A stretch of DNA of 64,000 bases. It comes from Alcanivorax sp. 24. GTDB taxonomy: Bacteria > Pseudomonadota > Gammaproteobacteria > Pseudomonadales > Alcanivoracaceae. Below the pieces are notes generated by a model. That model searched no databases and was not told where the DNA came from. It worked only from the letters and a program-made list of their open reading frames with translations. The stretch covers positions 1-64,000 of the forward strand of contig NZ_SNUA01000008.1 of NCBI RefSeq assembly GCF_004360225.1, given 5' to 3'. This document shows positions 20,083 to 39,862 of this stretch, in pieces. Numbering within the stretch: the stretch's first letter is position 1; the number at the start of each line of letters is the position of its first letter. The position numbers and the translations under genes were made by a program.

Positions 20083-20110
20083 CAGGTTGTCCCCATGGTC
20101 AGTCTAGCCA

Positions 20111-23100: not shown

Positions 23101-23761
23101 TGAAACGGGCGAAGGTGCGGGCGGCGTTCTTCGCTTCCTGCTGGGATACCGCGTCGCGGCGGCCGCGCAGGGCGCCGTACAGCCGGGCCAGATAAGCGCC
23201 TTTCTTCTCGTAGGTCTCCACGTTCTTTTTGCCGAACGTCCGGCGCAGCGCATTGGGCAGCTCGGTGATTTCCACCACCTGACGTTCGGCGCCCTCTCCG
23301 TGCACGAAGTGCGACAGGCTCAGCATCTCGCCGGGCACGATCATCAACAGCAATTCACTTTGCCGCGCCTGGGCGGTCATACCGGCACGGTCCAGATGCG
23401 CGCGCACGCCAATCACCGCCGTGAACGGTTCGGCGGTCTCGCCCTTGGTGGGATGAAACACGCCGGCCAGGTAACCGTCGCTGTCATAGGGACGGGCGAA
23501 GGCGCCGTCGTCGCAGCCGAGAATATAGGACGCCAATGTGCGCACCTGCTTGCCGCCCCGGCCGCGCTGGGTGGTCTCGTCCTGGCCCGGGTTGTAGTTG
23601 AACAGATTGTCGTGGGCGGCGGTCATCAGCGTCTGCAGGGCGTCGGCGGCGGTGGTCTTGCCGGAGCCGTTACCGCCGGAGAACAGATTGATGGGGCCGT
23701 ATTCCAGCTCTTCGGCGGGCAGGTTGCCCCAATTGACGGTGATGGAACGTTTCAAAAACAT
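20111..23761 (-). CDS. jetC: Wadjet JetC, SMC-like ATPase
   Basis: The 1216-aa MukB-like SMC protein drives DNA loop extrusion in the Wadjet anti-plasmid complex. It has Walker A FSGGNGSGKTTAA (about residues 27-39), long Gln/Glu/Arg-rich coiled coils with a hinge-like globular part near 480-640, the ABC signature GTGSGGQLE near 1077 and Walker B VIVDEAFMHMDE near 1112. All ATPase motifs look intact. It starts 40 bp after jetB ends, in the jetABCD order. Confidence 0.95.
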   Translation of the reverse strand: MFLKRSITVNWGNLPAEELEYGPINLFSGGNGSGKTTAADALQTLMTAAHDNLFNYNPGQDETTQRGRGGKQVRTLASYILGCDDGAFARPYDSDGYLAGVFHPTKGETAEPFTAVIGVRAHLDRAGMTAQARQSELLLMIVPGEMLSLSHFVHGEGAERQVVEITELPNALRRTFGKKNVETYEKKGAYLARLYGALRGRRDAVSQQEAKNAARTFARFMAYKPVDSIDQFVAGEVLEAQDMGDTLRRIRDMLRTIHGMEQEARQLRASVDYLEQARGLAGQYQETWLERTALAYGAAAQRYRRNQRQYLEKKEEQSQLRQQQQALREEAEQVEQRLEQAHDELVGLEARIQGIPALRDKQQLQAQLDSLTQQLQQGARPLLEQDQQRTRNFTALRNLRDLLNRHSIELELPLFASRGWRATSKELLTLEQRPIPDLNQMLARDWIDLSPLESGLEQARAEQQLHNYLAEQLHGPAESGTNQDALSLAQRLDRLVTQRAQALEKLDEQQRQIQHRISTLESKRVNYPRDVEEALQAIREQCPQADPRVLCDHVEVQDPEWQMAIEGYLGGARFGILVEPDYEAEAIRVVRRLAGRQRNKARVIQGEQARRDAEKAALPAESIFHVLRFSHRTAEHYLKASYGNVVRVDDAETLRRTRRGITSDGLGSGNYALFRCDLDDSQLVFGETARERNLYAQRHALMDVQESYRHASDDYQAVRQLQQQVLEFKPLDWVATVTHLLQCQRQLSDTEQALANLDLSDHEELERQQQDARQRHKQLTQRQGELKEENGKLGEQQHACERAISALADQSEQLQQDQEDAEEHLHACTRYWPDLDVLSRIDAMDQRLQAAQDDIDFDSEERALLNTLSSNAVTLERLVGDYNQQAQPADQILIETAEELHSAPFFGHVHHLHQQLDNLHNRLRNNVLLSKLEQLGGLRDTFNTTFVSDLCNQIQQAIKDGERTLKNLNKELEHHYFGADRERFSFDWEWVREYKEYWDFFREVTEIPNLGDGASLFESTLSDKATEVRDRLLALLLDGDEQQALRELERISDYRRYRRYDILKHPEGKAPIRLSQYGTGSGGQLETPAYIIRAAAITSAFRFNEGDSHLRMVIVDEAFMHMDETRSRQVIRYLTETLGLQLIFIMPTSKAGPFLDLVSNQFVFSKVPSPVPVGELNTRVLLDRQQLNQDRIAELWDQHRRVIRQQGALDFMEGIS

Positions 23762-23801
23762 GGGCGGCTCGGATCAACAAAGGCGAACGTGAAATAACCG
23801 A

Positions 23802-24470
23802 TCATGATGGCAGATCTTCCGATGAAGGGGCTTCGGCATCCGGCCCGTCGCCGGTGAGCTGGCTGAGTACCGCGTCGGTGACCAGGCTGGTGATGTCCGG
23901 ACGGATGGTCAGCCAGGTCTCGGCGTCTTCCAGACCGTCGTCGCTGGCGGTGCGGATCAGCCGTAACTGACGCAGCCGGCGGAACAGGGCGCGCCGTTCG
24001 GTGAGCGCCTCCGGCAGCGGCCGGCCAAGCAGATTCTTGCTGGCCAGGTTGAACGCTTCCAGCGGCAGCATCACTTGGCCGTGTTCGTCGATCTGGCCTT
24101 CGCGCAACGCTTTGTCGTACTCCGCGCGCAACACCAGAATGGCGGCCACTTCCTGTTGGCTCAAACGCTCACGCAAGCCCTGGTTGAAGCCGTCCTCGCT
24201 GTCGGCCAGGCCGGGCACCTCGGCGCCGGGCGGAAACAGCCGCAGCGAATGGAAGCGCCGTTCGTGCAGCAGGCGGATGCGCAGCACGCTCAAATAATCC
24301 TCCACCAGATCGGCCACCTGCAGGTAGCGATCGTAGAGCTCCGTTTCCTTTTTGCTTTCGTCGCGGCACAGCACGCCCCGGTCCAGCAGCCGGATCATCA
24401 GTTCGGAGAACTGATCCGGGCCGACGCCGCGGGCCTCCAGAGCCTCGGCCAAAGCGTCACGTATCGTCAT
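23802..24470 (-). CDS. jetB: Wadjet JetB, kite-type subunit
   Basis: The 222-aa protein (DUF4194 family) is the kite-like winged-helix partner of the JetA kleisin, comparable to MukE. Recognisable parts are the N-terminal MTIRDALAEALEARGVGPDQ, the segment RYLQVADLVEDYLSVLRIRL and RRLRQLRLIRTASDD. ATG 24470 lies inside the jetA 3' end (14-bp overlap), so the two are translationally coupled. An upstream in-frame start at 24563 would add sequence that is only jetA in another frame. Confidence 0.92.
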   Translation of the reverse strand: MTIRDALAEALEARGVGPDQFSELMIRLLDRGVLCRDESKKETELYDRYLQVADLVEDYLSVLRIRLLHERRFHSLRLFPPGAEVPGLADSEDGFNQGLRERLSQQEVAAILVLRAEYDKALREGQIDEHGQVMLPLEAFNLASKNLLGRPLPEALTERRALFRRLRQLRLIRTASDDGLEDAETWLTIRPDITSLVTDAVLSQLTGDGPDAEAPSSEDLPS

Positions 24471-25893
24471 CGTGTTCCAGTTCCAGCAAGAAACCATCGC
24501 GGCGACCGAAATAGCGTTCGCCGACGATGGGGTCGGTGGGTTCGATGCGCAGCCGGAAACCACTGGCCCGATGGTCGGCGCTGCCCAGCTCGATCACATG
24601 GCTGAGCGCCAGCAGATCGGTGGCGTTATTCACCGGCAGGTCGCGGTTGTCGATGCGGCGGCTGGCGCCCAGAGCCTGGCGCAAATAGTCACGCAGACCT
24701 TCGCCGTGGATGCTGAACGCCTTCTCCAGCAACTGTTGAATCGCCAGGTCGCGCAGCGTGGCCGGGTCCGGCGCGTCCAACTGAGCCATGCGGCTTTGCA
24801 CCTGCCGTTTTTCCCGCTGCTCGCGCAGCCGGTTCTGGGCCGGATCCACCAGCCCCAGACGTAAATGGGCCATGGCGCGCCCGGCGGCCTCCAGGCGTTT
24901 GGCGGTGGTGGCATCATCCAGCTCGGACAGCTCCCGGCACAGGCCGACAATGTCACTGTGTTGCTGGCTGTGCAGATAGCTGAGCTGGCGGATGATAATG
25001 TCCGCCCGCCGGGTAAAGCCCTGCAGGGTCCGGCGCAGGGCCGGCAGCATGATCTCGGCGGCGCCGCGCATGCGGGTCTCGATGCTGTCCAGCAACTGCC
25101 ACAACACCGAGCCTTCCGGGTTGATCACCAGATCCGGCGCCAGCCGCCGCAGCTCCAGCTCCGCGTTGCGCTTCCAGTCCGTGGGTTTGCGGCGGATGCG
25201 CTCAATCGTGTTCTGGATGCGGTCGCGATGTTTTTCCACACTGTCGGCGGACATGCGGATCGCCACGTCCGGCTGGAAGCGCTTCTCCATGAACTCGAAA
25301 AACTGGTCGCTGGCCTGCTGCACCAGTTGCTGGGCCTCCACTTCCTTGACCAGCTCCCGCTTGCGCTCTTCCAGCTCGGCGATGATGTCGGTGAAATCAG
25401 CGATGATGCGCTCGGAATGCTCATGGGCGTCGAGCAGATCATAGACCTCGCCGCGATCCAGAAACGCGGCCAGCGCATTGAGCGTATTGCGGGTATTACG
25501 ATGGCGGGTGCGGATGCCGCGGCCGTCCACCTCCGCCAGAGTCTGGGTGAACAGGCGCCCGGTGCGGCTGAACGGATAGGTGGACTGAAACGACGCCTCG
25601 TCCTTGTCCCGCTTCAGCCAGCCATGCTCCACCAGCGTATTGAGAATCCAGGCGGCCTGCTCCCGATTGTTGCGGAAGCGGCCGCCGTCCTCATCGCCGC
25701 CCTCCAGCAAGGGCGCCCGCTCCAGCGCCTCGCTGAACACATCCAGCACCTGCTCGCGCTTGAGCGACTCGCCATAATCGGCCTGGGCGCTGTACAGACG
25801 CTCGTGCAACAGGCGCAGACACTCGGCCACCTGCTCGCGGTACTTGCCGGTCAGCGGCTTGAAGAATTGATGGCGGTCTTCGGTGAAAAACAT
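24457..25893 (-). CDS. jetA: Wadjet JetA, kleisin subunit
   Basis: The 478-aa protein starts MFFTEDRHQFFKPLTGKYRE, typical of JetA, the kleisin that bridges the JetC ATPase heads, comparable to MukF. The middle is helical and rich in Arg/Glu (IIAELEERKRELVKEVEAQ). The start at 25893 is chosen because the longer frame to 26049 adds unrelated low-similarity sequence. It is the first gene of the jetABCD operon. The WYL gene upstream is on the same strand but 325 bp away. Confidence 0.93.
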   Translation of the reverse strand: MFFTEDRHQFFKPLTGKYREQVAECLRLLHERLYSAQADYGESLKREQVLDVFSEALERAPLLEGGDEDGGRFRNNREQAAWILNTLVEHGWLKRDKDEASFQSTYPFSRTGRLFTQTLAEVDGRGIRTRHRNTRNTLNALAAFLDRGEVYDLLDAHEHSERIIADFTDIIAELEERKRELVKEVEAQQLVQQASDQFFEFMEKRFQPDVAIRMSADSVEKHRDRIQNTIERIRRKPTDWKRNAELELRRLAPDLVINPEGSVLWQLLDSIETRMRGAAEIMLPALRRTLQGFTRRADIIIRQLSYLHSQQHSDIVGLCRELSELDDATTAKRLEAAGRAMAHLRLGLVDPAQNRLREQREKRQVQSRMAQLDAPDPATLRDLAIQQLLEKAFSIHGEGLRDYLRQALGASRRIDNRDLPVNNATDLLALSHVIELGSADHRASGFRLRIEPTDPIVGERYFGRRDGFLLELEHDDDT

Positions 25894-26160
25894 GGCGTCA
25901 GCTAAAGGGTTGCAATAAAGCGTTGGAATAAGGGCCGATGATACCGGCAATCGACGGCGGCTGCCTGCTGGCCTGCCCGGATGTTCAGAGCTATGTTGGC
26001 ACCCGAGGATTCCTCGGTAGTTCGCCGTGAAGGGAACGGTGGCGGGCATTGATCAAAAAATAAGCGCAAGACTCGGAATTGAGTGGGGAGGCTGGCCGCG
26101 GCCTGCTAGGCATGGTCTCCCGCTACACATAATCCTCAGCAATCCGGCAATGGCTTCAAC

Positions 26161-26218: not shown

Positions 26219-27115
26219 TCAGCCACCCCCACCATCCCCCCACAACCAAGCCGCCACCGCCTCCCGATTCCCCAACGCGATCTGCTGCGCCTCCGGCGCC
26301 CGATTATCGGCCACGTCCAAATGCAGCAGCTGCACCACGTAATTCACCAGCGCGGCACGGCAGGGAATCAGCAAACGGCCGTCTTCCATGGCGTAATCCC
26401 GGGCGATCATCGCCTGCTGGCGGGCGTCCAGACGCGGGTCCGGCACCACTTCCAGGGTCAGCGGGGTCTGCCAGGCCTCATCCTCGTCGGCTCCCTGCCA
26501 CGCCTCGGTAACCGGCTCCGGATCATCCTCGATCCGGCTCAACACGAAATCCCGGTACGCAGAGTTCTTCTCGCACCAGGCGCGCACATGCCAGCGCAGC
26601 CCGCTGTGCACCACTGTATGCGGCTGAATCACCCGCTCCTCCGGCACCGGATTACGCAGGGACGCATAACGAATCTCCACCCGCAGTCCTTCCCGGCAGG
26701 CCTGCAGAATAGGGCGCAACACCGCCGGGCGCAGATCCCGCCGGGGCGGCAACAACACCTCCGTATTCAGCTCCCGCACGTCCAGCGCCTCGAAGGCGCA
26801 GCTCAAATCCTCCCGGGCGTGCATCATCTGCAAATACTCGTCCGCCACCCCGCGCGTAAACCGGGGCTCGAACTCAGGGGAGGGCTTGTAACCCTTCAAG
26901 GAACGGTCATAGACCAGATTCTCCGGCGCGTGCTCGGACAAATACTGATTGATGTCCTTGCTGGCCTGCTGCCGCCCGATCCCGAACGCCCGCTGCAGAT
27001 GATTGGTGGTCAACCGCCCCTCCCAAAGAGCGATCACCTCGATCAACCGATACCGCAGCAACAAATCCCAACGCAGAGGCCACTTCCCCGCGTTCTGTCC
27101 AGTAGTGCGCGCCAT
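26219..27115 (-). CDS. WYL-domain transcriptional regulator of the Wadjet locus
   Basis: The 298-aa protein has an N-terminal winged helix-turn-helix (LRWDLLLRYRLIEVIALWEG, RAFGIGRQQASKDINQYLSE) and a C-terminal WYL domain (HSGLRWHVRAWCEKNSAYRD). The domain order resembles BrxR/CapW-type regulators, which repress defence operons and bind inverted repeats. It precedes jetABCD on the same strand. It is strongly similar to the second WYL protein at 53990-54877, and the two share a 42-bp upstream sequence. It ends in an unusual WGDGGGG tail. Confidence 0.88.
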   Translation of the reverse strand: MARTTGQNAGKWPLRWDLLLRYRLIEVIALWEGRLTTNHLQRAFGIGRQQASKDINQYLSEHAPENLVYDRSLKGYKPSPEFEPRFTRGVADEYLQMMHAREDLSCAFEALDVRELNTEVLLPPRRDLRPAVLRPILQACREGLRVEIRYASLRNPVPEERVIQPHTVVHSGLRWHVRAWCEKNSAYRDFVLSRIEDDPEPVTEAWQGADEDEAWQTPLTLEVVPDPRLDARQQAMIARDYAMEDGRLLIPCRAALVNYVVQLLHLDVADNRAPEAQQIALGNREAVAAWLWGDGGGG

Positions 27116-27970: not shown

Positions 27971-30850
27971 ATGACAAATGAGAGCATTACGGACTATCAC
28001 GCCAAGTACTTCGCCTATGAGCTGACTCGTCAGCGGCGAGGCGGTGATGTTGATCGATTGGCAACATCCTTGTTCGATGCTTCTATCGACCTCAACCCGC
28101 ATCAGATTGATGCTGCCCTGTTTGCCCTACAGAACCCGCTGACCAAAGGCGTGCTGCTTGCCGATGAGGTGGGGCTCGGCAAGACCATTGAAGCGGCTTT
28201 GGTTATTTGCCAGTACTGGGCGGAGCGTCGGCGCCGCTTGATTGTCATAGCACCGGCAGCCCTGCGCAAGCAGTGGGCAACCGAGCTGGCCGAAAAATTC
28301 CATCTGCCCACCCAGGTTCTCGATGCTCGCACCTACAAGCATCGGCGTGATCAGGGGATCTACGACCCGCTGGATCAGGACGTCATCAGCGTGATGTCCT
28401 ACCATTTCGCGGCCAAGCTGGAGCCACAGCTGCGCACCATCCCCTGGGATCTGGTGATAATCGATGAGGCCCACAAGCTGCGTAACGCCCACCGTGAGAG
28501 TCATCGCACCGGGCAGGCCATCAAGCGTGCCTTCGCCGGCAGCCGGAAGCTGCTGCTCACGGCTACGCCACTGCAGAACTCATTACTCGAACTCTACGGC
28601 CTCTCCACAGTGATCGATGACCAGCTATTTGGCGACGCGATCAGCTTCCGCCGCCAGTTCATGCGTGGTGGTAATGACATCGAGGGGGTGCGACGCCGGC
28701 TAAATGAATTTGCCAAACGCACCCTCCGCCGCCAGGTGCTGGAGTACGTGCAGTACACTGAGCGCAAGGCGCTGACGATACCCTTCACCCCGTCCCAGGA
28801 TGAGCAGCGTCTCTACCATCTGGTATCCGGCTATCTGGCACGGGAGGACAGCTATGGCGTGCCCACGCGACAACGCCACCTTGTGACACTGGTTATGCGC
28901 AAGCTGCTGGCGTCCTCTACCACGGCCATTATCCAGACGCTAGAGACCCTCAAGGAGCGACTCGAGTCGTTGCAGAACCATCACCAGGTTGAACAAGACT
29001 GGCTGGAGCGGCTGCTGGCCGATGAGTCGCTCGATGATGAGCTGTTGGAAACTGCGGAAGCAGATGAAGTGGAGGAGGCCGGTGCCCGGTATCTGGAACA
29101 GGAGGTTCATCCCACTCGCTTACAGGGTGAGATCGCCGAAATAGAGCAGTATCTGAGCCTGGCTCGGGGGATTCACGAGGATGCCAAGTCCCATGCACTG
29201 GTTACCGCGCTGGAAACAGGCTTTTCCCGAATGGATGATATGGGGGCACCGCGCAAGGCAGTAGTGTTCACCGAATCCCGGCGTACTCTTGAGTACCTAA
29301 GCCGATTTCTGGAGCGGCACGGCTTTGCTGATCAGGTTGTGACCTTCAGCGGCACCAACAACAGCCCTGGGGTGACGGGCATTTATCAACGCTGGCTTGC
29401 GGAGCATGCTGGCAGCGACCGAGTGACGGGCAGTCCTGCGATCGACCGCCGTACTGCTATCATCGACCACTTCCGAGATAAGGCGCAGATCCTGGTCGCT
29501 ACCGAGGCGGCTGCCGAAGGGGTCAACCTGCAGTTCTGCAACTTGGTGGTGAACTACGACCTGCCCTGGAATCCTCAGCGTGTGGAGCAGCGCATCGGTC
29601 GTTGTCACCGCTACGGCCAGCAGTTTGATGTGGTGGTGGTCAACTTTCTCAACCAGCGCAACGAGGCCGACAAGCGTGTGCTCGAGCTGCTGAGCGAGAA
29701 GTTCCAGCTGTTCGATGGCCTGTTCGGCGCTTCCGATGAAATTCTCGGACGGCTGGAGTCGGGCGTGGATGTGGAGAAGCGCATTGCCGCCATCTATGCC
29801 ACTTGCCGCACGCCGACCGCCATCGAAACGGCCTTCGCCGAACTGCGTGAGCAGTTGGAGGCGGATATCGATGCCCGCATGAAGGAGACGGAGAGCAAGC
29901 TGCTCGAGCATTTCGATGAACAAATCCACGACCTGCTGCGCGTTCAGCGCGACAAGGCCGAGGCTCAGCTCGACCGCACCGGCAAGCTGTTCTGGAAGTT
30001 GACCCGCCACTGCCTGGCGGAGCAGGCCAAGTTCAGCGATAGCAGTCTGACCTTTCACTTGGAAGCCTCTCCGGTAGAGAGCGTGCCCGCCGGTGACTAC
30101 TGGCTGATTCGCAAGGGGAAGGGTATCAAACCGCCCGAGCATGCCCACATCTATCGGCTGACACATCCGCTGGGCGAGCATGTCCTCGATAGCGGCCGCC
30201 GCCGGGAAACGCCGGTCGCCACCCTGCGCTTTCAGCTGTCCGATCACCCGCTGCGAATCTCGGTACTCGAACAGCTCACCACCCGCAGTGGATGGCTGGA
30301 GCTGAATCTGCTCGAATTGGACAGCTTCCAGCATGAGGAGCACCTGGTCTTCACTGCCCTGGCTGACGATGGCACACACCTTGACCAGGAGGCCTGTGAG
30401 CGAGTCTTCAATGTGACGGCTGAGGTAGTGCCCGATAGCGCACCCGCCCCCCCTCAGGAGCTCTTTGCTCTGGCCAAACGGCAGCTGGATGCCACCCTTA
30501 GCCGTGTGCTTGAGGAGAATCACAGCTACTTCCAGCGCGAGCGCGACAAGCTGGAGGCCTGGGCCGATGATCAGGTCGCTTCCAGTGAAGCGCAACTGGA
30601 GGACACGCGGGCCAAGATCAAGGATGCCAAGCGCCGCTCACGCACCGCCGAGACCCTTGAGGAGCAGAAGGCTGCCCAGGAAGCGCTCAAGTCGCTTGAG
30701 CGTCAGCAGCGCCGCGACCGTCAGGCGATATTCGACGTGCAGGACGAGATCGAGGAGAAGCGCGATGCGCTCATCGATGCCCTGGAGCGCCAGATGCACC
30801 GCAAGAGCCAGACGCATCGCTTGTTCCGGATACGCTGGGAGCTTGCATGA
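27971..30850 (+). CDS. SNF2/HepA-like helicase-translocase of a type III-like R-M unit
   Basis: The 959-aa protein has a superfamily 2 motor: motif I DEVGLGKT (65-72), motif II DEAH (165-168), LTATPLQNS, and motif VI QRIGRCHRYGQ near 540. A C-terminal region of about 300 residues is charged and coiled-coil (AQLEDTRAKIKDAKRR, EEIEEKRD-like). SNF2 proteins move along double-stranded DNA and remodel bound proteins; in defence systems such as DISARM they act with methyltransferases. Here it is the first gene of a same-strand run with Mod, a small protein and Res, which implies joint function. The substrate is unknown. Confidence 0.85.
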   Translation: MTNESITDYHAKYFAYELTRQRRGGDVDRLATSLFDASIDLNPHQIDAALFALQNPLTKGVLLADEVGLGKTIEAALVICQYWAERRRRLIVIAPAALRKQWATELAEKFHLPTQVLDARTYKHRRDQGIYDPLDQDVISVMSYHFAAKLEPQLRTIPWDLVIIDEAHKLRNAHRESHRTGQAIKRAFAGSRKLLLTATPLQNSLLELYGLSTVIDDQLFGDAISFRRQFMRGGNDIEGVRRRLNEFAKRTLRRQVLEYVQYTERKALTIPFTPSQDEQRLYHLVSGYLAREDSYGVPTRQRHLVTLVMRKLLASSTTAIIQTLETLKERLESLQNHHQVEQDWLERLLADESLDDELLETAEADEVEEAGARYLEQEVHPTRLQGEIAEIEQYLSLARGIHEDAKSHALVTALETGFSRMDDMGAPRKAVVFTESRRTLEYLSRFLERHGFADQVVTFSGTNNSPGVTGIYQRWLAEHAGSDRVTGSPAIDRRTAIIDHFRDKAQILVATEAAAEGVNLQFCNLVVNYDLPWNPQRVEQRIGRCHRYGQQFDVVVVNFLNQRNEADKRVLELLSEKFQLFDGLFGASDEILGRLESGVDVEKRIAAIYATCRTPTAIETAFAELREQLEADIDARMKETESKLLEHFDEQIHDLLRVQRDKAEAQLDRTGKLFWKLTRHCLAEQAKFSDSSLTFHLEASPVESVPAGDYWLIRKGKGIKPPEHAHIYRLTHPLGEHVLDSGRRRETPVATLRFQLSDHPLRISVLEQLTTRSGWLELNLLELDSFQHEEHLVFTALADDGTHLDQEACERVFNVTAEVVPDSAPAPPQELFALAKRQLDATLSRVLEENHSYFQRERDKLEAWADDQVASSEAQLEDTRAKIKDAKRRSRTAETLEEQKAAQEALKSLERQQRRDRQAIFDVQDEIEEKRDALIDALERQMHRKSQTHRLFRIRWELA

Positions 30851-30996
30851 ATCCGCGCAGGACATGACGTGGAGGCCTGCCGGCCGGTATCATTCTGGCA
30901 AACGAATCAACAGGGGCTGAGCCTATCGCTCGGCCCCGCTTTGCGCATATCGCATTGATTTTTAAAATCTTTGCAAGGGATGAATGGGATTCCCCA

Positions 30997-33900
30997 ATGA
31001 ATGTAGTAACAGTCGACGGTCACAAGGAACGCTTCATCAAGCTGCTCCATGAGCTGTTCCAGCTCGACAAGCCCGAGTTGGATTTCGGGCTCTATCGCAT
31101 CATGCACGCCAAGAGCGATCAGCTCTCTCGGTTCATCCGCGAAGACTTGGCCAAGGCCATCGAGGAGGCGTTTACCGAGCAGGGCGAGCAGCAGCTGGCA
31201 GCGATGCGTCAGGAGATCGAGGAGAAGCGGCATCAGGCCGAAGAGCTGGGCGCCCCGGACCCAGATAGCGCCCCGGCGGTGAAGCAGGCGCGGGCCGCCT
31301 ATGATGTCGCCAAGCGAGAGCAGAACGCTTCGGCGGACATCTACGACCATCTCTATCGCTTCTTCTCGCGCTACTACGACAAAGGCGACTTCATGAGTCG
31401 TCGCCACCACGTCGCCGAGAATGACAGCCGTGCCGCCCCCTATGCGGTGCCTTACGATGGGCGGGAGGTCTACCTCCACTGGGCCAACAAGGACCAGTAT
31501 TACGTCAAGTCCTCCGAGACGCTGGCCAACTTCACTTTCAACCTCAACGAGGCCCTGAAAAAGCTGCAGGGTTCGGCTGCCCAGGCTGGCCTAGGTTTCG
31601 ATTCGGTGGATGCGGCACTCAAGGTGCACTGCCGTGTGGTGGACGCCACCGAAGGTGAGCATAATGATGTGAAGGCGAGCACCGAGCGCTTCTTCATCAT
31701 CCATCACGACGAGCCGGTGCGCCTGGAGGGCGCTGACCTGGCACTGCAGTTCGAGTACCGGCCCGACCCGGAAAAGACAGGGCAGAGTGGCACTTGGCAG
31801 AAGAAGCGGCTCGAGGAGGCCGAAAACGTCATCATGGCGGCGCTGCGTACCATCGATGGTGTAGCTGTCTATCGGGAAGGGCTGGCTACCCGGGCGCCGA
31901 CGGACAAGCAGAAAGAGCGCACCTTGTTGGGCAAGTACCTGCAACAGTATACCGCCCGCAACACCATGGATTATTTTATCCACAAGGACTTGGGTGGGTT
32001 TCTCTCTCGTGAGCTGGATTTCTATATCAAGAATGAGATCCTGCGGCTGGATGATATCGACAATGCCGGTTTGCTGGTCGTAGAGCAGCAACTAAAGAAA
32101 ATTCAGGTGTTGCGCAAGGTTGCCAAGAGCATCATCGTTTTTTTGGCGCAGTTAGAGGGTTTTCAGAAGAGGCTTTGGCTCAAGAGGAAGTTTGTTAAAG
32201 AGGTCGATTACTGTCTCACGCTTGACAGGCTTGAAGGAAATGAAGAGATTTTGTGTGAAGTTTTTCAGCAAATATTGCAGCGTAAGCAATGGGAGAATAT
32301 TTACGCTATAAACTTGGATGAACTTGATCGTGATTTGAGCAGCAAGGGTGTTAGTGAGCTTGTAAAACATGAGAAATATCGGTTTCTCATGGTTGATACG
32401 GCCTTGCTCCCAAAGAGCCTGAAATATGAGATTGCTAGTTTGTCGTATGGAGATAGTGATTTCTTAGACGGAATTTTAGTTCAATCAGATTCATTCCATG
32501 CATCTAGGCTCATGGCTAGTAGCCTCCGACGGTCAGTTGATACAATTTACATTGACCCGCCCTATAACACAGGGAAAGATGACTTTGTTTACAAAGATGG
32601 ATACCGGTCATCTAGCTGGTTATCAATGGTCCATGATCGAATTTCCAGTTTTCGTGATTTTTTAAGGAACACCGGCGGCTTCTTCTCTAGTTGTGATGAG
32701 AATGAGTTTAAAAACTTGTCTAGGGTCGTCGAGGATATATTTGATGAAAGCAATTTTGTTAGCGAGTTTGTTTGGAAAACAGATGGGAATTTTGACAATC
32801 AAGCCAAAGTAAAACTTGCGCATGAGTACATTTTGTTTTATTCAAAGAATAGAGATCAGCTTCCTTACCCAAGTGCAATAGAGGGTTGGGCTAGTGAAAA
32901 TAGCAAGCTATTTAACGATAGCATTGTTAACACAATAGTAAAAAATGGTCCCAAAAATCCACCTGGCGATGTCATTCTTCCAGTAGGCTTTCCATCAAAT
33001 GAGAAGGCCTTTTTTCTAAAAAGTGACGATGTAACATGGCCAAAGTACAGTACTGATGTGGAAGTCAATGATTGGAAGCTTGCTCATGAGGTCAAAGCAA
33101 GGTCCGGGTGGAGCTCAAAATCTTTACTGCTACAGTTTATTGAGTCCGGATTGAAGCCGGTGTATGACAACAAAGGTCAAGAGACAGTGTTCTACTTGAC
33201 AAAAAATGGTGCAATTGAGTCAAAGAAAAAAAGAAGCAAAGATCATGGTCATATAACTTCGTTGATACAAAAGGTGGGTACAACACAGTCTACCAGCTCT
33301 TTTCTTGATCACATGGGTGTCCCATATCCAGACTACCCTAAGCCTATAGGGTTGATGCGGCATGTCGCATCTATTGTAAAAGATTCCAAATTCATCTTGG
33401 ATTATTTTGCTGGGTCTGGATCAACTGCCCATGGGGTCATTGAGGAAAGCAGGGAGAGCGGTAAAAAGATTAGATACGGTTTGATCGAAATGGGTGAACA
33501 TTTTGACACGGTGATGAAGCCTAGAATCCATAAGGCAGTTTACTCATCGAGCTGGAAGGACCAGACCCCTAAAAAGAATGACCATGGTAAATTTGGGGGG
33601 CTGTCTCATGCTTTTAAATACTTTCGTCTTGAAAGCTACGACGACACATTAAACAACCTCGAGCTAGAAGATAACCCTCAACGCGACGCGCTGATGGAGC
33701 AGAACCCGGAGCTGCGTCGTGACTATACTCTCAAGTACCTGCTTGACGTGGAAACCCGTGGCTCGGCCAGTCTGCTCAACACCGAATGGTTCCGTGACCC
33801 CGAAGGCTACACGCTGAAGGTCAAGCAGTCCGGCAGCGACGAGACCCGTGAAACGAACGTCGACTTGGTCGAAACGTTCAACTGGCTGATCGGCCTGCAT

Positions 33901-34320
33901 GTCACTCACCTCGACAAGCCGCGCACCTATATTGCCCGCTTCAAGCGCGAGGAAGACCCCGAGCTGCCGGAGGACCAGAACACGCGACTCAAGGCAGAAG
34001 GCCTGCGAGAGAATGAAGATGGCGCCTACTGGATTCGCAAGGTGGAAGGACACGTGCGCCGTATCCCGGGCAGCGACGAGGACCTGGCCAAGGTGTTGGT
34101 GGTGTGGCGCAAGCTGACTGACGACCCCGAGAAGGATGCTGCGGTGCTGGAAGCACTGCTGGAAAAGTACAAGATCGGCACCACCGACAGTGAGTTCGAT
34201 GCCATCTACATCAACGGCCCGCACGGCTTGAACCTGACCGGCAATGCGCGTAGCCGAGTGCACAGCCTGGAAGAGACCTTCCATGCCCGCATGTGGGAGG
34301 GGTGTGATGATGAGGATTGA
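30997..34320 (+). CDS. Type III-like adenine DNA methyltransferase (Mod) with long N-terminal domain
   Basis: The 1107-aa protein is a beta-class N6-adenine methyltransferase: DPPYNTG at residues 520-526 comes before the SAM motif FAGSG at 804-808. About 500 residues precede the catalytic domain, with a charged coiled coil (EEAFTEQGEQQLAAMRQEIE near 60-80) and no match I can name. ATG 30997 is preferred to 30955 because a GGGA lies seven bases upstream and the extra residues look non-coding. Bases 32085-33660 are about 40% GC in sampled lines while the flanks are 55-62%, so the core including the target-recognition domain was probably exchanged. It overlaps the next small gene. Confidence 0.88.
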   Translation: MNVVTVDGHKERFIKLLHELFQLDKPELDFGLYRIMHAKSDQLSRFIREDLAKAIEEAFTEQGEQQLAAMRQEIEEKRHQAEELGAPDPDSAPAVKQARAAYDVAKREQNASADIYDHLYRFFSRYYDKGDFMSRRHHVAENDSRAAPYAVPYDGREVYLHWANKDQYYVKSSETLANFTFNLNEALKKLQGSAAQAGLGFDSVDAALKVHCRVVDATEGEHNDVKASTERFFIIHHDEPVRLEGADLALQFEYRPDPEKTGQSGTWQKKRLEEAENVIMAALRTIDGVAVYREGLATRAPTDKQKERTLLGKYLQQYTARNTMDYFIHKDLGGFLSRELDFYIKNEILRLDDIDNAGLLVVEQQLKKIQVLRKVAKSIIVFLAQLEGFQKRLWLKRKFVKEVDYCLTLDRLEGNEEILCEVFQQILQRKQWENIYAINLDELDRDLSSKGVSELVKHEKYRFLMVDTALLPKSLKYEIASLSYGDSDFLDGILVQSDSFHASRLMASSLRRSVDTIYIDPPYNTGKDDFVYKDGYRSSSWLSMVHDRISSFRDFLRNTGGFFSSCDENEFKNLSRVVEDIFDESNFVSEFVWKTDGNFDNQAKVKLAHEYILFYSKNRDQLPYPSAIEGWASENSKLFNDSIVNTIVKNGPKNPPGDVILPVGFPSNEKAFFLKSDDVTWPKYSTDVEVNDWKLAHEVKARSGWSSKSLLLQFIESGLKPVYDNKGQETVFYLTKNGAIESKKKRSKDHGHITSLIQKVGTTQSTSSFLDHMGVPYPDYPKPIGLMRHVASIVKDSKFILDYFAGSGSTAHGVIEESRESGKKIRYGLIEMGEHFDTVMKPRIHKAVYSSSWKDQTPKKNDHGKFGGLSHAFKYFRLESYDDTLNNLELEDNPQRDALMEQNPELRRDYTLKYLLDVETRGSASLLNTEWFRDPEGYTLKVKQSGSDETRETNVDLVETFNWLIGLHVTHLDKPRTYIARFKREEDPELPEDQNTRLKAEGLRENEDGAYWIRKVEGHVRRIPGSDEDLAKVLVVWRKLTDDPEKDAAVLEALLEKYKIGTTDSEFDAIYINGPHGLNLTGNARSRVHSLEETFHARMWEGCDDED

Positions 34321-34615
34321 AACCAGTGCGTCTACCTACTGGATCGTTGCTGGTCTCCAATGGGGCAGGCAAGACAGCGTTTATGCTTCACTACAACTTA
34401 CTCGTCAAGGATATACGGCTTTGACTCAGCTGGCATCGGACACCCAGGAGATGCTCGATAGCCTCCGTATCGCAGTCGCTGACACCTTGGAACGTAAGCG
34501 TCGCCTTGGCCAGTACGCCGTGATCTGGCAAGACGGCAAGCCCGTGCAGGTGGGTGAGGATGCGCCGACAAATCTGATTGAGGAGCAGGACGATCAGGGC
34601 CGGGAGTCGCATTGA
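34307..34615 (+). CDS. Small protein between Mod and Res, unrecognised
   Basis: A 102-aa protein (start ATG 34307 or 34310) overlapping the mod 3' end by 14 bases and the res start by one base (TGATG). It begins MMRIETSASTYWIVAGLQWG, with a predicted amphipathic middle (DTQEMLDSLRIAVADTLERK) and an acidic C-terminus (EEQDDQGRE). I do not recognise the family. Tight coupling on both sides implies it is made in step with Mod and Res; a bridging subunit, recognition cofactor or inhibitor are all possible. Confidence 0.7.
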   Translation: MMRIETSASTYWIVAGLQWGRQDSVYASLQLTRQGYTALTQLASDTQEMLDSLRIAVADTLERKRRLGQYAVIWQDGKPVQVGEDAPTNLIEEQDDQGRESH

Positions 34616-37600
34616 TGGCAAGGAGGCCACGCCAAACCAAGATCAAGCAGCTCAGTGCCAAGAGCGATTTTCTCAAGAAGCTGATACTCAACCAATGGGT
34701 GCTGACGCGCTTCGGTATCGACCCGTTGGAGCAGTACCGGGACAGCGGCAGCCGGGTACGCCCGATTACCCTGCTCAGCAAGACGCTAAAGGAGAGTGAT
34801 CCAGGGCTGACCGGTGATCGCCACCACCACTATCTCCATGCCTTGCTGGGTAGCTATCAGCCCACCTGGAAGTATGGTGAGGAGGATTTGAAGCGCTTCG
34901 ACGCCAACATCGTCGAACATACCGATGCCCTCAATCAACAGCGTGAGATTGAGGTCGATTGGAAGTACTTTCAGTGGCTGACTCTGCTGTTCGTGGAGAT
35001 CTACCTCCACGAGTACTTCCGCGATCGTGAGGTGCTCAAGGCCAGCCTCAACCGGCAGGTCGAACGGTTCAATAGGTTCTGGCAGGGGCAGGGCTACCAG
35101 ACAGGCATAGGCCCTTATGAGGACGATGATCTCAATAAACTGTGTCTGCAAAACGCCACTGGCTCCGGCAAGACCCTGCTGATGCACACTAATGTGCGTC
35201 AGTTCCGGCATTACGCTCGTAAGCATCACCGTATCGCCGACTACGGCCAGATCATTCTGATTACACCCAACGAACGGCTCAGTGAGCAGCACCTTCTGGA
35301 GTGCCGTGATTCCAGCCTGGAAGCGGAGCGCCTGAGCCAGGACGGTGGAGACCTCTTCAGCGGCGACCGGAAATCGCTGAGCCGTGTTGCCGTGACCGAG
35401 ATTACCAAGCTCGGCATTGAGCAGGGTAAGAAGACCATGGCGGTGGACAGCTTCGGAGACGCTAACCTGCTGCTCGTCGACGAAGGGCACCGCGGACTGG
35501 GATCGGCGAGCGAAGAGATGGGGTGGCTGTCTCATCGCAACAAGCTGGCCGGGCGTGGTTTCACCTTCGAATATTCGGCCACCTTCAAGGAGGCCGTGGT
35601 TGCCGCCAAGGATGTCGCGGTGGAGGAGACCTACGCCAAGAGCATCCTGTTCGATTATGGCTACCGCTATTTCTACGAAGATGGTTACGGCAAGGATTAT
35701 CGAATCTTCAACCTGCCGGAGAGGGAGACACAGCAACGCTACACCTACCTCACGGCGGCACTGCTGGCTTTCTATCAGCAACAGCGCTACTACCAGGAGG
35801 AGCATGGCCACCTAACCCAGTGGAATCTGGCTGCTCCGTTATGGGTATTCGTCGGGGCCAGTGTGGTCAAGGACGATGGCAGCAAGGAGACTGCCAAGAA
35901 CTACAAGGACCGTGCTTCCGATATCGCCCAGGTCTTGGGCTTTCTGGCTTGGTTCCTCGGGGAGAAGGATGAAGCCCGCCGGGCGCTCAGCGCAGTCTAT
36001 GAAGGTGACGCAGCAACTACCGGGCTGATAGACAAGCAAGGCAACGAGATCTTCTCGGGAAGCTTCCCCTGGGTCAAGGCTCAAGGACCGACCGTCGAAG
36101 AGCTCTACCGGGACATCCTTACTCATACCTTCCATGCCCCGGGCGGTGGCACGTTGAACGTAGATCGTATCACTGGTGACTCTGGCGAGCTTCTGCTGAA
36201 GGTGGGAGAGGCCGAGAAACCTTTCGGCCTGATCAACGTGGGCGATGCGCCGGGGTTGGCTGAGCACCTTGATGGCCGCAAGATCCTGCACCTGCAAGTC
36301 CGGAAGTCGGAGCTGGCCAATCCCATCTTCGCCGAGGTCACTCGCGACAGCTCACCGGTTAACTTACTGATCGGCTCCAAGAAGTTCATCGAGGGCTGGA
36401 ACTGTTGGCGTGTCTCCAGTATGGGCCTTATGAACACTGGCAAGAAGGAAGGCTCGCAGATCATCCAGCTGTTCGGTCGTGGCGTACGCTTGAAAGGCCG
36501 TGACATGAGCCTGATGCGCTCCAGTCGGCTCGATCCGGTACTGGCTCCCAAGCACCTCTATTTGCTCGAGACCCTCAACGTCTTTGGCGTCGGCGCCGAC
36601 TTCATGGCGACCTTCCGGGATTTCCTGGAGGACGAGGGCCTGCCGGGCAACGACCAGCCCGAGATCCATACACTCAAGCTGAACGTGATGGAGGACGTTG
36701 GCAAGTCGTTGAAGATGCTGCGTCCCAAGGTCCGACAGGACACCAAGCAGTCTTATAGCTTTCACCGCGACGGCCCCTTGGTGCGCTTCGGACATCCTGT
36801 GGCTACCGGCGGTAGCGGTTTCCACCATGAGCTGGGCCTGACGCCGGATATCGTGCTCAAGGAGCGCAAGGTAGAGCTCGATCGCTACCCTCGGGTCGAA
36901 AGCTTGCAGGCCACGGGCCTGAAGGACGTAATGGCCAAGCCTGGTGAGGCCAAGCAGCACGAGCGCTACTTCGATGACGAGCGCTTGTTGTTCCTGGATA
37001 TGGCTGCCCTAGGGCGAGACTTGGAGCGTTACAGGCGATCCCGCGGCTACGCCAACCTGCTGATCGATGCCAGCCGGTTCCCGGCGCTGCTGAAGAGCCA
37101 GGTGTGGTACAGGCTGCTGGTTCCCGAGGACCAGTGGAAGCTGCATGCCGACAACTTCCAGCGCTACCAGAGCATGGCGCTGGAGCTCCTGTCGCTGCTG
37201 ATGGACCGGGTCTTCAACTACCACCGCCGAGCCTACCTGGAGCCGCGCATGGAGCTGATCGCGCTCGAGGATGCCCGTGGCAACTTGCCGGATACCAGGG
37301 AGTATCAGCTGATCGTCGACGGCAGCGAATCGGCGCTGATCGACGACATCAAGCAGATGAAGGAGGCCATCGAGAAGCAGCGTCAGGCGCTCTATCGTTC
37401 GTCCAAATCCAATGGCATCAGCGCCGTTCAGATCGGCGCTCATCTTTACAACCCGCTGTTGCACCTGGGCAAAGACAGCCGTATCCGCGTCGAACCCGTT
37501 GCCCTGAACGACAGCGAGTTCCGCTTTGTCGAAGATCTCAAAGGTTGGCTGGAGCGAAATCAGCAGGCGATAGCGGAACGTGGTGAGCAGCTCTACCTGC

Positions 37601-37974
37601 TACGTAACCTGGTGAAGCAGGGCATTGGCTTCTTCGAGGCGGGTGGATTCTACCCTGACTTCATCCTCTGGCATGTGCAGGACGACCGGCAGCGCATCGT
37701 TTTCGTTGACCCTCATGGGCTCCGCCATACCGGGCCGAAGGACGAGAAGATCGAGTTCTGCGAGCGTATCAAGGATGTGGAACGGCGCCTGAAGAGTGAG
37801 CACGTCGAGCTGGAAAGCGTCATTCTGGCCCCTTCCAGCACCACGCGTGAGTGGATCACTAGCCATTGGGGCATGACGGCAGAGGAGCTGCGTGAAAAGC
37901 ACGTGCTCTTTATGTCTGACTCATATTATCTAGATCAGTTAATGGAGCTCGTTGTAGTGGGTAAGGACGCTTGA
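34615..37974 (+). CDS. Type III-like restriction subunit (Res): SF2 helicase with C-terminal PD-(D/E)xK-type nuclease
   Basis: The 1119-aa protein has Walker A ATGSGKT (181-187), Walker B DEGH (289-292) and motif VI QLFGRGVRLKG from residue 618, as in type III Res and related DEAD/DEAH helicases. A C-terminal nuclease-like motif has YPDFILW (Asp1015) followed by VFVDPHGL (Asp1032, Pro1033, His1034). In related proteins I expect DPKG, so the catalytic lysine may be replaced by histidine. Start ATG 34615 overlaps the stop of the small gene. With Mod it would make a restriction complex; the SNF2 gene upstream makes the set unusual. Confidence 0.87.
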   Translation: MARRPRQTKIKQLSAKSDFLKKLILNQWVLTRFGIDPLEQYRDSGSRVRPITLLSKTLKESDPGLTGDRHHHYLHALLGSYQPTWKYGEEDLKRFDANIVEHTDALNQQREIEVDWKYFQWLTLLFVEIYLHEYFRDREVLKASLNRQVERFNRFWQGQGYQTGIGPYEDDDLNKLCLQNATGSGKTLLMHTNVRQFRHYARKHHRIADYGQIILITPNERLSEQHLLECRDSSLEAERLSQDGGDLFSGDRKSLSRVAVTEITKLGIEQGKKTMAVDSFGDANLLLVDEGHRGLGSASEEMGWLSHRNKLAGRGFTFEYSATFKEAVVAAKDVAVEETYAKSILFDYGYRYFYEDGYGKDYRIFNLPERETQQRYTYLTAALLAFYQQQRYYQEEHGHLTQWNLAAPLWVFVGASVVKDDGSKETAKNYKDRASDIAQVLGFLAWFLGEKDEARRALSAVYEGDAATTGLIDKQGNEIFSGSFPWVKAQGPTVEELYRDILTHTFHAPGGGTLNVDRITGDSGELLLKVGEAEKPFGLINVGDAPGLAEHLDGRKILHLQVRKSELANPIFAEVTRDSSPVNLLIGSKKFIEGWNCWRVSSMGLMNTGKKEGSQIIQLFGRGVRLKGRDMSLMRSSRLDPVLAPKHLYLLETLNVFGVGADFMATFRDFLEDEGLPGNDQPEIHTLKLNVMEDVGKSLKMLRPKVRQDTKQSYSFHRDGPLVRFGHPVATGGSGFHHELGLTPDIVLKERKVELDRYPRVESLQATGLKDVMAKPGEAKQHERYFDDERLLFLDMAALGRDLERYRRSRGYANLLIDASRFPALLKSQVWYRLLVPEDQWKLHADNFQRYQSMALELLSLLMDRVFNYHRRAYLEPRMELIALEDARGNLPDTREYQLIVDGSESALIDDIKQMKEAIEKQRQALYRSSKSNGISAVQIGAHLYNPLLHLGKDSRIRVEPVALNDSEFRFVEDLKGWLERNQQAIAERGEQLYLLRNLVKQGIGFFEAGGFYPDFILWHVQDDRQRIVFVDPHGLRHTGPKDEKIEFCERIKDVERRLKSEHVELESVILAPSSTTREWITSHWGMTAEELREKHVLFMSDSYYLDQLMELVVVGKDA

Positions 37975-38255: not shown

Positions 38256-39131
38256 ATGAAACACCAATTTGGGGGTATATGGACTAGGAAGAAATTGACG
38301 ATTCTGGAAGCGTACTTGCGTTTCTACGTTACCGCACTCAAGAACCAGCCCTTTAAACTGCATTATGCGGACGCCTTTGCTGGTACCGGCTCCCATTCGC
38401 CGGCTACCGTGGAGAGTCAGGATATGCTGATTCCCTATGAAGACTTCAAAGGCTCGGTGGAGGTGGCGCTTTCGGTTGATCCCGCTTTTCACCAGTATCA
38501 TTTCAATGATCTGAACCCGGCTCACATCGCGGAACTTGAGGCTATCAGGGATCGGCATCCCTACAAAGAGATCGAGATATATCAACAGGATGCCAATGCC
38601 TTTGTGCCTGCTTTCTGCTCAAGTCTGAGTGGGCGGGATCGCGCGATCCTGTTCCTCGACCCATACAGTACCCAGCTTGACTGGTCCACGTTGGAGCATG
38701 TGGCGATAACAGAAAAGGTCGACCTTTGGCTGCTGTTTCCCATTTCTGTCATTCTGCGGATGATGCCTCGAGGTGGGGACCGGATCAGGCCAGAGTGGCG
38801 TGAGACGCTGAATCGGCTTCTCGGTACGGACAGGTGGGAGGAAGCGCTTTACAAGCCGGTTGATTTGCCGATGATCGGTGATCTTTTCGGCGATGGTGAT
38901 CCGACGCCTGTGGCGAAAAGGACCAATGTGGATGAGTTGCAGAAATGGGTGAGGGCGAGGTTGGGCGAGCTATTCCCTTATGTGGCAAAACCGGTTTTGC
39001 TAAAAAACAAAGGGAGGCCGCTCTTCCTGTTCTTCTTCGCTGTTTCCAATCCGGAGCCGAAAGCGTGGGGACTGGCCGAGAAGGCGGTCTCCCATATTAT
39101 CGAAGAGGATGTAGGTGGTGATGTGCCATGA
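38256..39131 (+). CDS. tcmP: Three-Cys-motif partner protein TcmP
   Basis: The 291-aa protein resembles the TcmP family, a Rossmann-like methyltransferase-related fold: YADAFAGTG (37-45) in the SAM-loop position and FLDPYSTQLDW from residue 133, where relatives have DPYG. TcmP occurs next to three-cysteine Gp37/Gp68 proteins, as here, where the stop overlaps the next start by four bases (ATGA). Function is unknown; a nucleic-acid or nucleotide modification role is often proposed. An AAGGAAAC ribosome site precedes the start. Confidence 0.83.
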   Translation: MKHQFGGIWTRKKLTILEAYLRFYVTALKNQPFKLHYADAFAGTGSHSPATVESQDMLIPYEDFKGSVEVALSVDPAFHQYHFNDLNPAHIAELEAIRDRHPYKEIEIYQQDANAFVPAFCSSLSGRDRAILFLDPYSTQLDWSTLEHVAITEKVDLWLLFPISVILRMMPRGGDRIRPEWRETLNRLLGTDRWEEALYKPVDLPMIGDLFGDGDPTPVAKRTNVDELQKWVRARLGELFPYVAKPVLLKNKGRPLFLFFFAVSNPEPKAWGLAEKAVSHIIEEDVGGDVP

Positions 39132-39862
39132 GCAAAATCGAATGGACGGAAAGAACCTGGAATCCGGTGACTGGTTGCACCAAGGTGTCTCCTGGCTGCA
39201 AGCATTGCTATGCGGAAACCATGGCGAAACGCCTGCAGGCGATGGGTGCACCCGGTTATGAGAATGGATTCAAGCTTAGTCTGGTTCCCGAGCGCTTGAA
39301 TCAGCCCCTTCAGCGTCGCAAACCCACCATGTACTTCGTCAATTCCATGAGCGACCTGTTTCAGGATGGCGTGCCAGAGGCCTTTATTGATCAGGTGATG
39401 GACGTTATTCGTGCGACCCCGCAGCACATCTATCAGATATTGACGAAGCGCAGTGGGAATATGCGTGATTATTTTCTGACCCGACCGGTTCCGGAGAATG
39501 CCTGGCTTGGTGTGTCCGTGGAAGACAAAAAGTATGGCAAGCCTCGCATTCCAGATCTTCTGGCGATCAAGGCAAAAACGCGGTTCTTATCGATCGAACC
39601 GCTTCTTGAAGGGTTGGGCCGGTTAAAGCTGAAAGGCATCCACTGGGTTATTGTCGGCGGGGAGTCGGGTCATGGGGCCCGCCCCATGAAGGAAGAATGG
39701 GCTTTATCCATACGTGACCAATGCGAACGGGCCGGTGTGGACTTTTTCTTCAAGCAGTGGGGGGCGTGGGGCGAAGACGGCAAGCTCCGTAACAAAAAGG
39801 CAAACGGGCGAACGCTGGATGGCAAGGTTTGGGACATGATTCCGACGGTGGCAATGGCTTGA
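39128..39862 (+). CDS. Gp37/Gp68-type three-cysteine (DUF5131) protein
   Basis: The 244-aa protein has the defining Cys17-x6-Cys24-x2-Cys27 motif (GCTKVSPGCKHCYAE), followed by MYFVNSMSDLF and IVGGESGHGARPM, as in phage Gp37/Gp68 proteins. The Cys cluster resembles a radical-SAM iron-sulfur site, so SAM chemistry is plausible but not shown. It overlaps tcmP by four bases, so the pair is one unit. The partners lie 281 bp after res, on the same strand, at the end of the defence island. Confidence 0.88.
   Translation: MSKIEWTERTWNPVTGCTKVSPGCKHCYAETMAKRLQAMGAPGYENGFKLSLVPERLNQPLQRRKPTMYFVNSMSDLFQDGVPEAFIDQVMDVIRATPQHIYQILTKRSGNMRDYFLTRPVPENAWLGVSVEDKKYGKPRIPDLLAIKAKTRFLSIEPLLEGLGRLKLKGIHWVIVGGESGHGARPMKEEWALSIRDQCERAGVDFFFKQWGAWGEDGKLRNKKANGRTLDGKVWDMIPTVAMA

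What the first reader, a model, noticed from the sequence alone, without database searches (positions are those of the whole stretch)
27971..37974. SNF2 helicase + type III-like Mod + small protein + Res: a candidate under-described defence unit
Sequence shows four same-strand genes; the last three overlap or touch. The order SNF2, Mod (DPPYNTG before FAGSG), a 102-aa unknown and a Res-type helicase/nuclease differs from a plain two-gene type III system and lacks the DUF1998 (DrmA) and DrmB proteins of DISARM. It lies in a defence island beside Wadjet. Similar SNF2-Mod-Res neighbourhoods probably exist in databases; I do not know of a characterised one with this small protein.
Basis: partly seen in the sequence, partly recalled or inferred. 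Interest (0 to 1): 0.75.

Follow-up and report, generated by a model that had tools for sequence, protein, structure and literature searches.

The report
Three-gene restriction system with broken cargo
A bacterial DNA-cutting defence operon pairs a classical two-gene restriction system with a dedicated DNA-motor gene, and the puzzling small gene inside it is the wreck of an inserted kinase gene and its partner.

Summary
The four genes are real. SNF2, Mod and Res form a recurrent three-gene type III restriction-modification unit; the fourth is not a component. The 102-aa ORF is a remnant: nearest relatives have a Zeta-type kinase gene and a 64-aa partner there; in the window the kinase has lost its frame and about 470 bp, and what is left runs into the partner.

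The SNF2 belongs to a DrmD/RapA-like family. In a class sample drawn evenly it is in 26 of 370 genomes; of 26 places other than the window, 20 have Mod and/or Res downstream, including all 17 with at least 6 kb of contig there. It partners two Mod-Res lineages, with at least five switches on a quick tree. The reverse is looser: of 6 testable long Mod-Res places besides the window, 3 lack SNF2. An ORF of 100 aa or more lies between core genes in 37 of 65 long-class and 20 of 25 short-class loci; many match toxin or defence families. Tests for DISARM and Hma fail. My paper searches found one passing gene list (PMC12757443), no description of the unit. Best reading: type III variant with a dedicated motor and a cargo slot; the motor's job is inferred.

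The parts
27971..30850 (+). SNF2 (DrmD/RapA-like) ATPase, 959 aa, first gene of the unit
   Evidence: GLGKT and DEAH motifs invariant in 59 of 59 aligned; AlphaFold model, best PDB hits RapA
30997..34320 (+). Mod, long-class type III adenine methyltransferase, 1107 aa, with a ~480-aa N-terminal part without PDB or Pfam relative
   Evidence: methyltransferase part matches EcoP15I Mod and other Mods
34307..34615 (+). 102-aa ORF = remnant of a Zeta-type kinase gene (start of the gene, frame lost, about 470 bp missing) run into the 64-aa partner gene
   Evidence: intact kinase plus partner in L016 and L011
34421..34615 (+). 64-aa partner ORF (TTG start possible) that survives inside the 102-aa ORF
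34615..37974 (+). Res, long-class type III helicase-nuclease, 1119 aa, PD...D-x-H nuclease motif

Best explanation
It is a three-gene type III restriction-modification unit, SNF2-Mod-Res, of a long-protein class. Mod marks adenines on one strand of an asymmetric site; Res with Mod scans invading DNA by ATP hydrolysis and cuts when sites are unmodified (inferred from the family). The SNF2 protein is a dedicated third motor, a RapA-like double-stranded-DNA translocase without RapA's N-terminal part; it most likely clears or remodels proteins on invading DNA so that Mod-Res can scan and cut (inferred). The gaps between the core genes hold exchangeable cargo, many of them toxins or small defence modules, probably backup effectors (inferred). 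In the window the cargo was a Zeta-type kinase with a small partner, and it is broken; the three core genes look intact.
For: From the SNF2 side: class sample, 26 of 370 genomes; of 26 places other than the window 20 have Mod and/or Res downstream on the same strand; the other 6 meet a contig end within 5.4 kb; all 17 with 6 kb or more have them. Family sample: 3 of 3 other places. Plasmids: of 50 records with the SNF2, I read 19; 16 have Mod and Res or their pieces on the same strand nearby; 13 more have Mod adjacent by coordinates; 18 not read. From the Mod side, 80 loci (best 80 of a capped scan) picked by Mod alone: SNF2 in 65 of 72 (63 of 70 if only loci with over 3.5 kb upstream count), Res in 70 of 70 (67 of 67) (its printed 69/78 and 76/76 include 6 plasmid loci). 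SNF2 partner lineage changes 6 times on a 97-row tree, 5 forced by supported branches, shuffles mean 21.6. SNF2 distances follow Mod and Res (r 0.50, 0.57; 0 of 999 permutations as high; 47 loci, window included). Motifs conserved. Remnant. Cargo.
Against: Nothing here shows restriction, methylation or phage exclusion. Long Mod-Res occurs without this SNF2: 7 of 72, and 3 of 6 testable in the class sample when the window itself is left out; two of the six plasmid loci chosen by Mod also lack it (Priestia has an SNF2-like gene only 17% identical, a haloarchaeon has none of the family). So SNF2 is not strictly required. A short-Mod profile matches 65 of 370 genomes, more than the 26 with SNF2. 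SNF2-Mod and SNF2-Res correlations are weaker than Mod-Res (0.87) and shared ancestry alone gives some correlation. One intact-looking plasmid SNF2 (Thioclava, L109) has no Mod/Res within 9 kb. The RapA match is loose (TM 0.37-0.50, rmsd 13-17 for the first four hits), so the job of SNF2 rests on weak ground.
Confidence: 0.6

Rival explanations
1. Ordinary two-gene type III RM with an SNF2 defence gene that merely sits next to it in a defence island.
For: Mod-Res alone is a complete restriction system in known cases (general knowledge); some long Mod-Res have no SNF2; a 146-bp gap separates SNF2 from Mod.
Against: In the class sample this SNF2 family is next to type III Mod/Res at all 17 places with at least 6 kb downstream; it occurs in many phyla and its partner lineage was swapped several times.
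Confidence: 0.2
2. A DISARM or Hma/BREX-related variant built around the DrmD-like SNF2.
For: Best models are DrmD; Hma (DUF499-centred) systems also have a Swi2/Snf2 helicase and an N6 methyltransferase (PMC12839542 section 28 and passages).
Against: SNF2 scores 656 bits against a DrmD_b cut-off of 950 and 283 against 610; eight of eight relatives tested score 630-720 on DrmD_b; DUF1998/MZB and DUF499 have no match in the genome; the methyltransferase is a type III Mod.
Confidence: 0.04
3. The small 102-aa protein is a true fourth subunit or regulator.
For: It overlaps Mod and Res like a translated gene; in its 64-aa part, codons 2-49, 7 differences from L016 are synonymous and 3 are not.
Against: Roughly its first 29 codons lie in DNA that matches the start of the intact kinase gene of L016 and L011, with about 470 bp missing. 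In the 150 loci held, homologs outside the window's own DNA were found only in L011, L013 and L016, each right after a Zeta-type kinase gene. Other genomes were not searched for it.
Confidence: 0.05
4. The surviving 64-aa partner still has a job of its own, for instance as a free antitoxin against related Zeta-type kinases.
For: Core sequence preserved; the genome has another Zeta-type kinase elsewhere (G000 contig 4).
Against: Only one genome with the remnant was seen; recent decay would look the same. That the partner is an antitoxin is a guess.
Confidence: 0.25

Closest known systems
Type III restriction-modification (EcoP1I/EcoP15I kind)
   Same: Mod with DPPY before FxGSG and PDB matches to EcoP15I Mod and other Mods; Res with helicase motifs and a PD-(D/E)-x-(K/H) motif; same-strand neighbours.
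   Different: Extra SNF2 gene; Mod of 1107 aa against 644 for EcoP15I Mod, with an unmatched N-terminal part; long Res has no sequence relative in the PDB at E 0.001; cargo genes between core genes.
DISARM (DrmD)
   Same: SNF2 is closest to DrmD among PADLOC and NCBIfam models.
   Different: Below DrmD cut-offs; no DUF1998/MZB in the genome; type III Mod and Res instead.
Hma / DUF499-centred BREX-related systems
   Same: Swi2/Snf2 helicase plus N6 adenine methyltransferase (PMC12839542); embedded candidates known (PMC12988326 passages).
   Different: No DUF499 match in the genome.
RapA
   Same: Best PDB hits of the SNF2 model by E-value (6e-25), though TM-scores are only 0.37-0.50 for the first four.
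   Different: Sequence alignment starts at position 36 of the SNF2 profile against about 150 of full-length RapA chains, so RapA's N-terminal part is lacking; RapA equivalog cut-off not met (143 against 576 bits).
Embedded defence genes / PrrC in type I RM
   Same: Toxin or defence genes lie inside a restriction operon (PMC12707154 passages; PMC12988326 passages; BREX loci in PMC12839542 section 35).
   Different: Here the host operon is type III.

Membership tests
Type III RM | Mod of N6/N4 methylase family with DPPY before FxGxG | tested here: met
Type III RM | Res with SF2 helicase motifs plus PD-(D/E)XK-type nuclease in one chain | tested here: met
   last residue is H in the window and in 32 of 63 Res, K in 31
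Type III RM | Neighbouring Mod and Res genes | tested here: met
Type III RM | One-strand methylation of an asymmetric site; cleavage of unmodified paired sites | not testable with these tools
   Needs methylome sequencing and cleavage assays
DISARM | DrmD above curated cut-off | tested here: not met
   656 bits against 950 and 283 against 610
DISARM | DUF1998 (MZB) protein | tested here: not met
   0 matches in the whole genome; control rings in 8 of 14
Hma / DUF499 BREX-related | DUF499 ATPase | tested here: not met
   0 matches in the whole genome; control rings in 1 of 14
RapA | RapA equivalog score | tested here: not met
   143 against 576 bits
RapA | N-terminal domain before the ATPase | tested here: not met
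   Alignment starts at profile position 31-36 against 146-158 of full-length RapA chains
Zeta toxin-type kinase (cargo) | Intact P-loop kinase ORF | tested here: not met
   Intact in L016 (Pfam Zeta_toxin 4.7e-10); broken in the window

The most novel reading that the evidence does not exclude
A RapA-like SNF2 motor is an exchangeable third subunit that defines a widespread, unnamed subclass of type III restriction, and these operons are platforms for embedded suicide or backup effectors that fire when phages block restriction, as PrrC does for type I.
Probability: 0.35. Interest if true: 0.75.

Novelty: new variant of a known kind. Interest (0 to 1): 0.55.

Why it matters
Type III restriction is usually described as a two-subunit system. 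A motor that keeps the company of two Mod-Res lineages across many phyla points to an unstudied step, and copies on E. coli and Klebsiella plasmids make it testable in laboratory strains. The cargo slot extends the embedded-defence idea to type III and offers a list of effectors to test. Because this SNF2 is the best match to DrmD models, surveys that count drmD as a DISARM marker (as PMC7205518 does, passage) may count some of these units (inference). It also shows that a small ORF inside an operon can be a gene wreck.

Tried and rejected
Small protein as component: rejected after finding the intact two-gene cargo. DISARM, Hma and RapA membership: rejected on scores and missing partners. Res with a dead nuclease because of H instead of K: not supported, H is as common as K among 63 Res. 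A C-terminal part peculiar to this SNF2: not claimed, because one DrmD model stops near residue 668 but the other runs to residue 945. MAFFT placed the gap of the deletion badly; local BLAST settled it. Promoter and terminator scans were at chance level. The PDB search with the long Mod model listed mainly methyltransferases; no hit that I could assign to the N-terminal part was seen in the 50 rows shown.

Literature (held library only; most subscription papers and bioRxiv are not held): searches. Searches found nothing. Searches showed 20 of 59 and 15 of 361 papers. Of the five papers I saw passages of four and did not open PMC11334073; of the four I saw passages of one. PMC12757443 (passage) lists a type III endonuclease, a Mod methyltransferase and an SNF2 helicase among the genes of one Cronobacter integrative element, without describing a unit in that passage. 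I found no paper that describes the three-gene unit. Payne et al. 2024 (bioRxiv) on embedded defences is not held and was seen only as cited.
Full report
Observation. Mod most likely starts at ATG 30997. Mod, the small ORF and Res overlap by a few bases; SNF2 is 146 bp from Mod. PADLOC models call Mod MTase_III, Res REase_III and SNF2 DrmD-like; the small ORF has no hit. About 280 bp after Res are TcmP and DUF5131 genes (PADLOC PDC-M41A and M30B/M41B); upstream on the other strand is a Wadjet.

What the small protein is. In Billgrantia (L016) and Halomonas (L011), whose Mods are 88% and 69% identical to the window's, the Mod-Res gap is 771 and 768 bp instead of 295 bp. There lie a P-loop kinase (205 aa from the start I chose; Pfam Zeta_toxin 4.7e-10) and a 64- or 63-aa ORF. 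The window aligns to L016 in two pieces of 87-88% identity, with about 470 bp of L016 in between that the window lacks; the pieces share 6 bp at the break. The window's ORF therefore starts in the old kinase gene, loses its frame, and ends in the partner. A kinase plus partner also sits between SNF2 and Mod in L013, and a kinase plus a 66-aa ORF of no detected likeness follows Mod in L019. So the pair is cargo, found in different slots, and in the window it is broken. Among the 150 loci held, homologs of the small ORF outside the window's own DNA are only in L011, L013 and L016. The 64-aa part keeps its core.

Is SNF2 part of the unit? From the Mod side, 80 loci were collected with a Mod profile alone, the best 80 of a capped scan, so they lean to close relatives. 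A locus counts if SNF2 was found or over 3.5 kb of upstream sequence is held: SNF2 in 65 of 72, or 63 of 70 by length alone; Res likewise in 70 of 70, or 67 of 67 (after setting aside 6 plasmid loci, of which 4 have SNF2 and 6 have Res). From the SNF2 side, in a class sample drawn evenly, 26 of 370 genomes have the family at E 1e-100. I fetched the 26 places other than the window. Twenty have Mod and/or Res downstream on the same strand; six end at a contig edge 0-5.4 kb on. All 17 with at least 6 kb have them; one of these (L115) has only broken pieces. Two of the class places (L117, L120) are the same contigs as L044 and L081 of the first set. The three other members found in the family sample also have Mod and Res. 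Among 50 plasmid records with the SNF2 I read 19: 15 have Mod and Res or their pieces on the same strand nearby, one more (E. coli STEC639, L107) has SNF2 and Res in pieces beside a Mod, two Providencia copies are cut by IS26, and one (Thioclava, L109) has none. Thirteen more have Mod next to SNF2 by coordinates. The remaining 18 were not read.

Two partner lineages. The SNF2 goes with long Mod and Res, or with short Mod (528-686 in eight plasmid loci, the stop counted in these printed lengths) and Res (875-997). On a quick tree of 97 SNF2 proteins the partner class changes 6 times, 5 forced by well-supported branches; one row (L073) is a very long branch whose place is unsure. Mod and Res distances agree strongly (r 0.87), SNF2 with each moderately (0.50, 0.57) in 47 loci. 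A motor swapped between lineages yet kept beside type III genes is hard to explain as a bystander.

Against a strict rule. Long Res (PADLOC model PDLC03654) is in 10 of 370 genomes: SNF2 adjacent in 4 (window included), contig broken in 3, absent in 3. A short-Mod profile, which also picks up some long Mods, matches 65 of 370 genomes, more than have SNF2. So this SNF2 appears to need type III; type III does not need SNF2.

Cargo. Of loci where the script saw all three core genes, 37 of 65 long-class and 20 of 25 short-class have a same-strand ORF of 100 aa or more between core genes. Left out: two duplicates, nine loci with a missing or cut neighbourhood, four loci where the script lost or lacked Mod (L005, L032, L059, L115), and the window. 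An ORF is not proof of a gene. Of 147 such ORFs I scanned 128 with Pfam; 19 were dropped (L005, L032 in part, L059, L060 in part, the L093 transposase, L110, L117, L120). Long-class set (74): AAA_21 14, DUF4276 11, Fic 9, YhcG 4, Zeta 4, RhuM 2, GmrSD 2, M78 peptidase 2 (25 of 37 families shown). Second set (54, short class plus three long loci): AAA_15 6, AAA_21 5, GmrSD 5, AIPR 4, DUF4276 3, AAA_13 3, Zeta 3 (25 of 43 families shown). How many ORFs match nothing is not reported by these calls. PADLOC hits of single ORFs: HEC-01 pair, SoFic, PDC-S02, PDC-S05, IetS, AbiD, AbiU, Ppl, Orf5/HEC-06. Cargo does not depend on SNF2: L147, without SNF2, has a Fic gene between Mod and Res. HEC stands for Hma-embedded candidate (PMC12988326, passages). 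Backup effectors inside BREX loci, including OLD-TOPRIM, GmrSD and Schlafen, are described in PMC12839542 (section 35, part 1), and PrrC in type I loci in PMC12707154 (passages). The same logic is a fair guess here.

Mechanism. Motifs needed for SNF2 ATPase, Mod methyl transfer and Res helicase-nuclease are intact and conserved. The SNF2 model (mean pLDDT 78) has RapA as best PDB hits, but loosely (TM 0.37-0.50 for the first four); the sequence alignment starts near RapA residue 150, so RapA's N-terminal part is missing. I infer a translocase that frees or remodels invading DNA for Mod-Res. Shown: gene identity, association, intact motifs, the remnant. Inferred: restriction, the SNF2 role, the backup role of cargo.

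Novelty. DISARM, Hma and RapA fail the tests made. Type III RM passes those that could be made. The searches named in Tried and rejected found one gene list that holds these genes together (PMC12757443) and no description of the unit. I file it as a new variant of type III RM.

Noticed in passing
window 26219-27115 (-) and 53990-54877 (-): Two WYL-domain regulators, 66% identical, one divergent from the SNF2 operon and beside Wadjet, one about 27 kb away.
   Followed up: partly
window 38256-39862 (+): TcmP and DUF5131 pair, PADLOC candidates PDC-M41A and PDC-M30B/M41B, about 280 bp after Res.
   Followed up: no
window 18964-26049 (-): Wadjet JetA, JetB, JetC, JetD all present.
   Followed up: yes
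window Res residues 1014-1035 and alignment A7: Nuclease motif ends in H in 32 and K in 31 of 63 Res, preceded by D (43) or E (20).
   Followed up: partly
window Mod residues 1-480: Large N-terminal part of the long Mod, conserved in the family, with no Pfam match and no PDB sequence relative.
   Followed up: partly
L008, L093, L094, L095, L097, L110 upstream of SNF2: Small helix-turn-helix gene just before or overlapping the SNF2 start; that of L093 resembles PADLOC mad1. In the window no + strand ORF of 40 aa or more lies in the ~350 bp before SNF2.
   Followed up: partly
G000 contig 4 310682-311143 and contig 9 96986-98152: The same genome has another Zeta-type kinase and a second, short Mod-like gene elsewhere.
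   Followed up: no
L007 and L082: Gene order Mod-Res-SNF2 instead of SNF2-Mod-Res.
   Followed up: no
L105 and L106: Providencia plasmids carry only an SNF2 fragment cut by IS26, near resistance genes.
   Followed up: no
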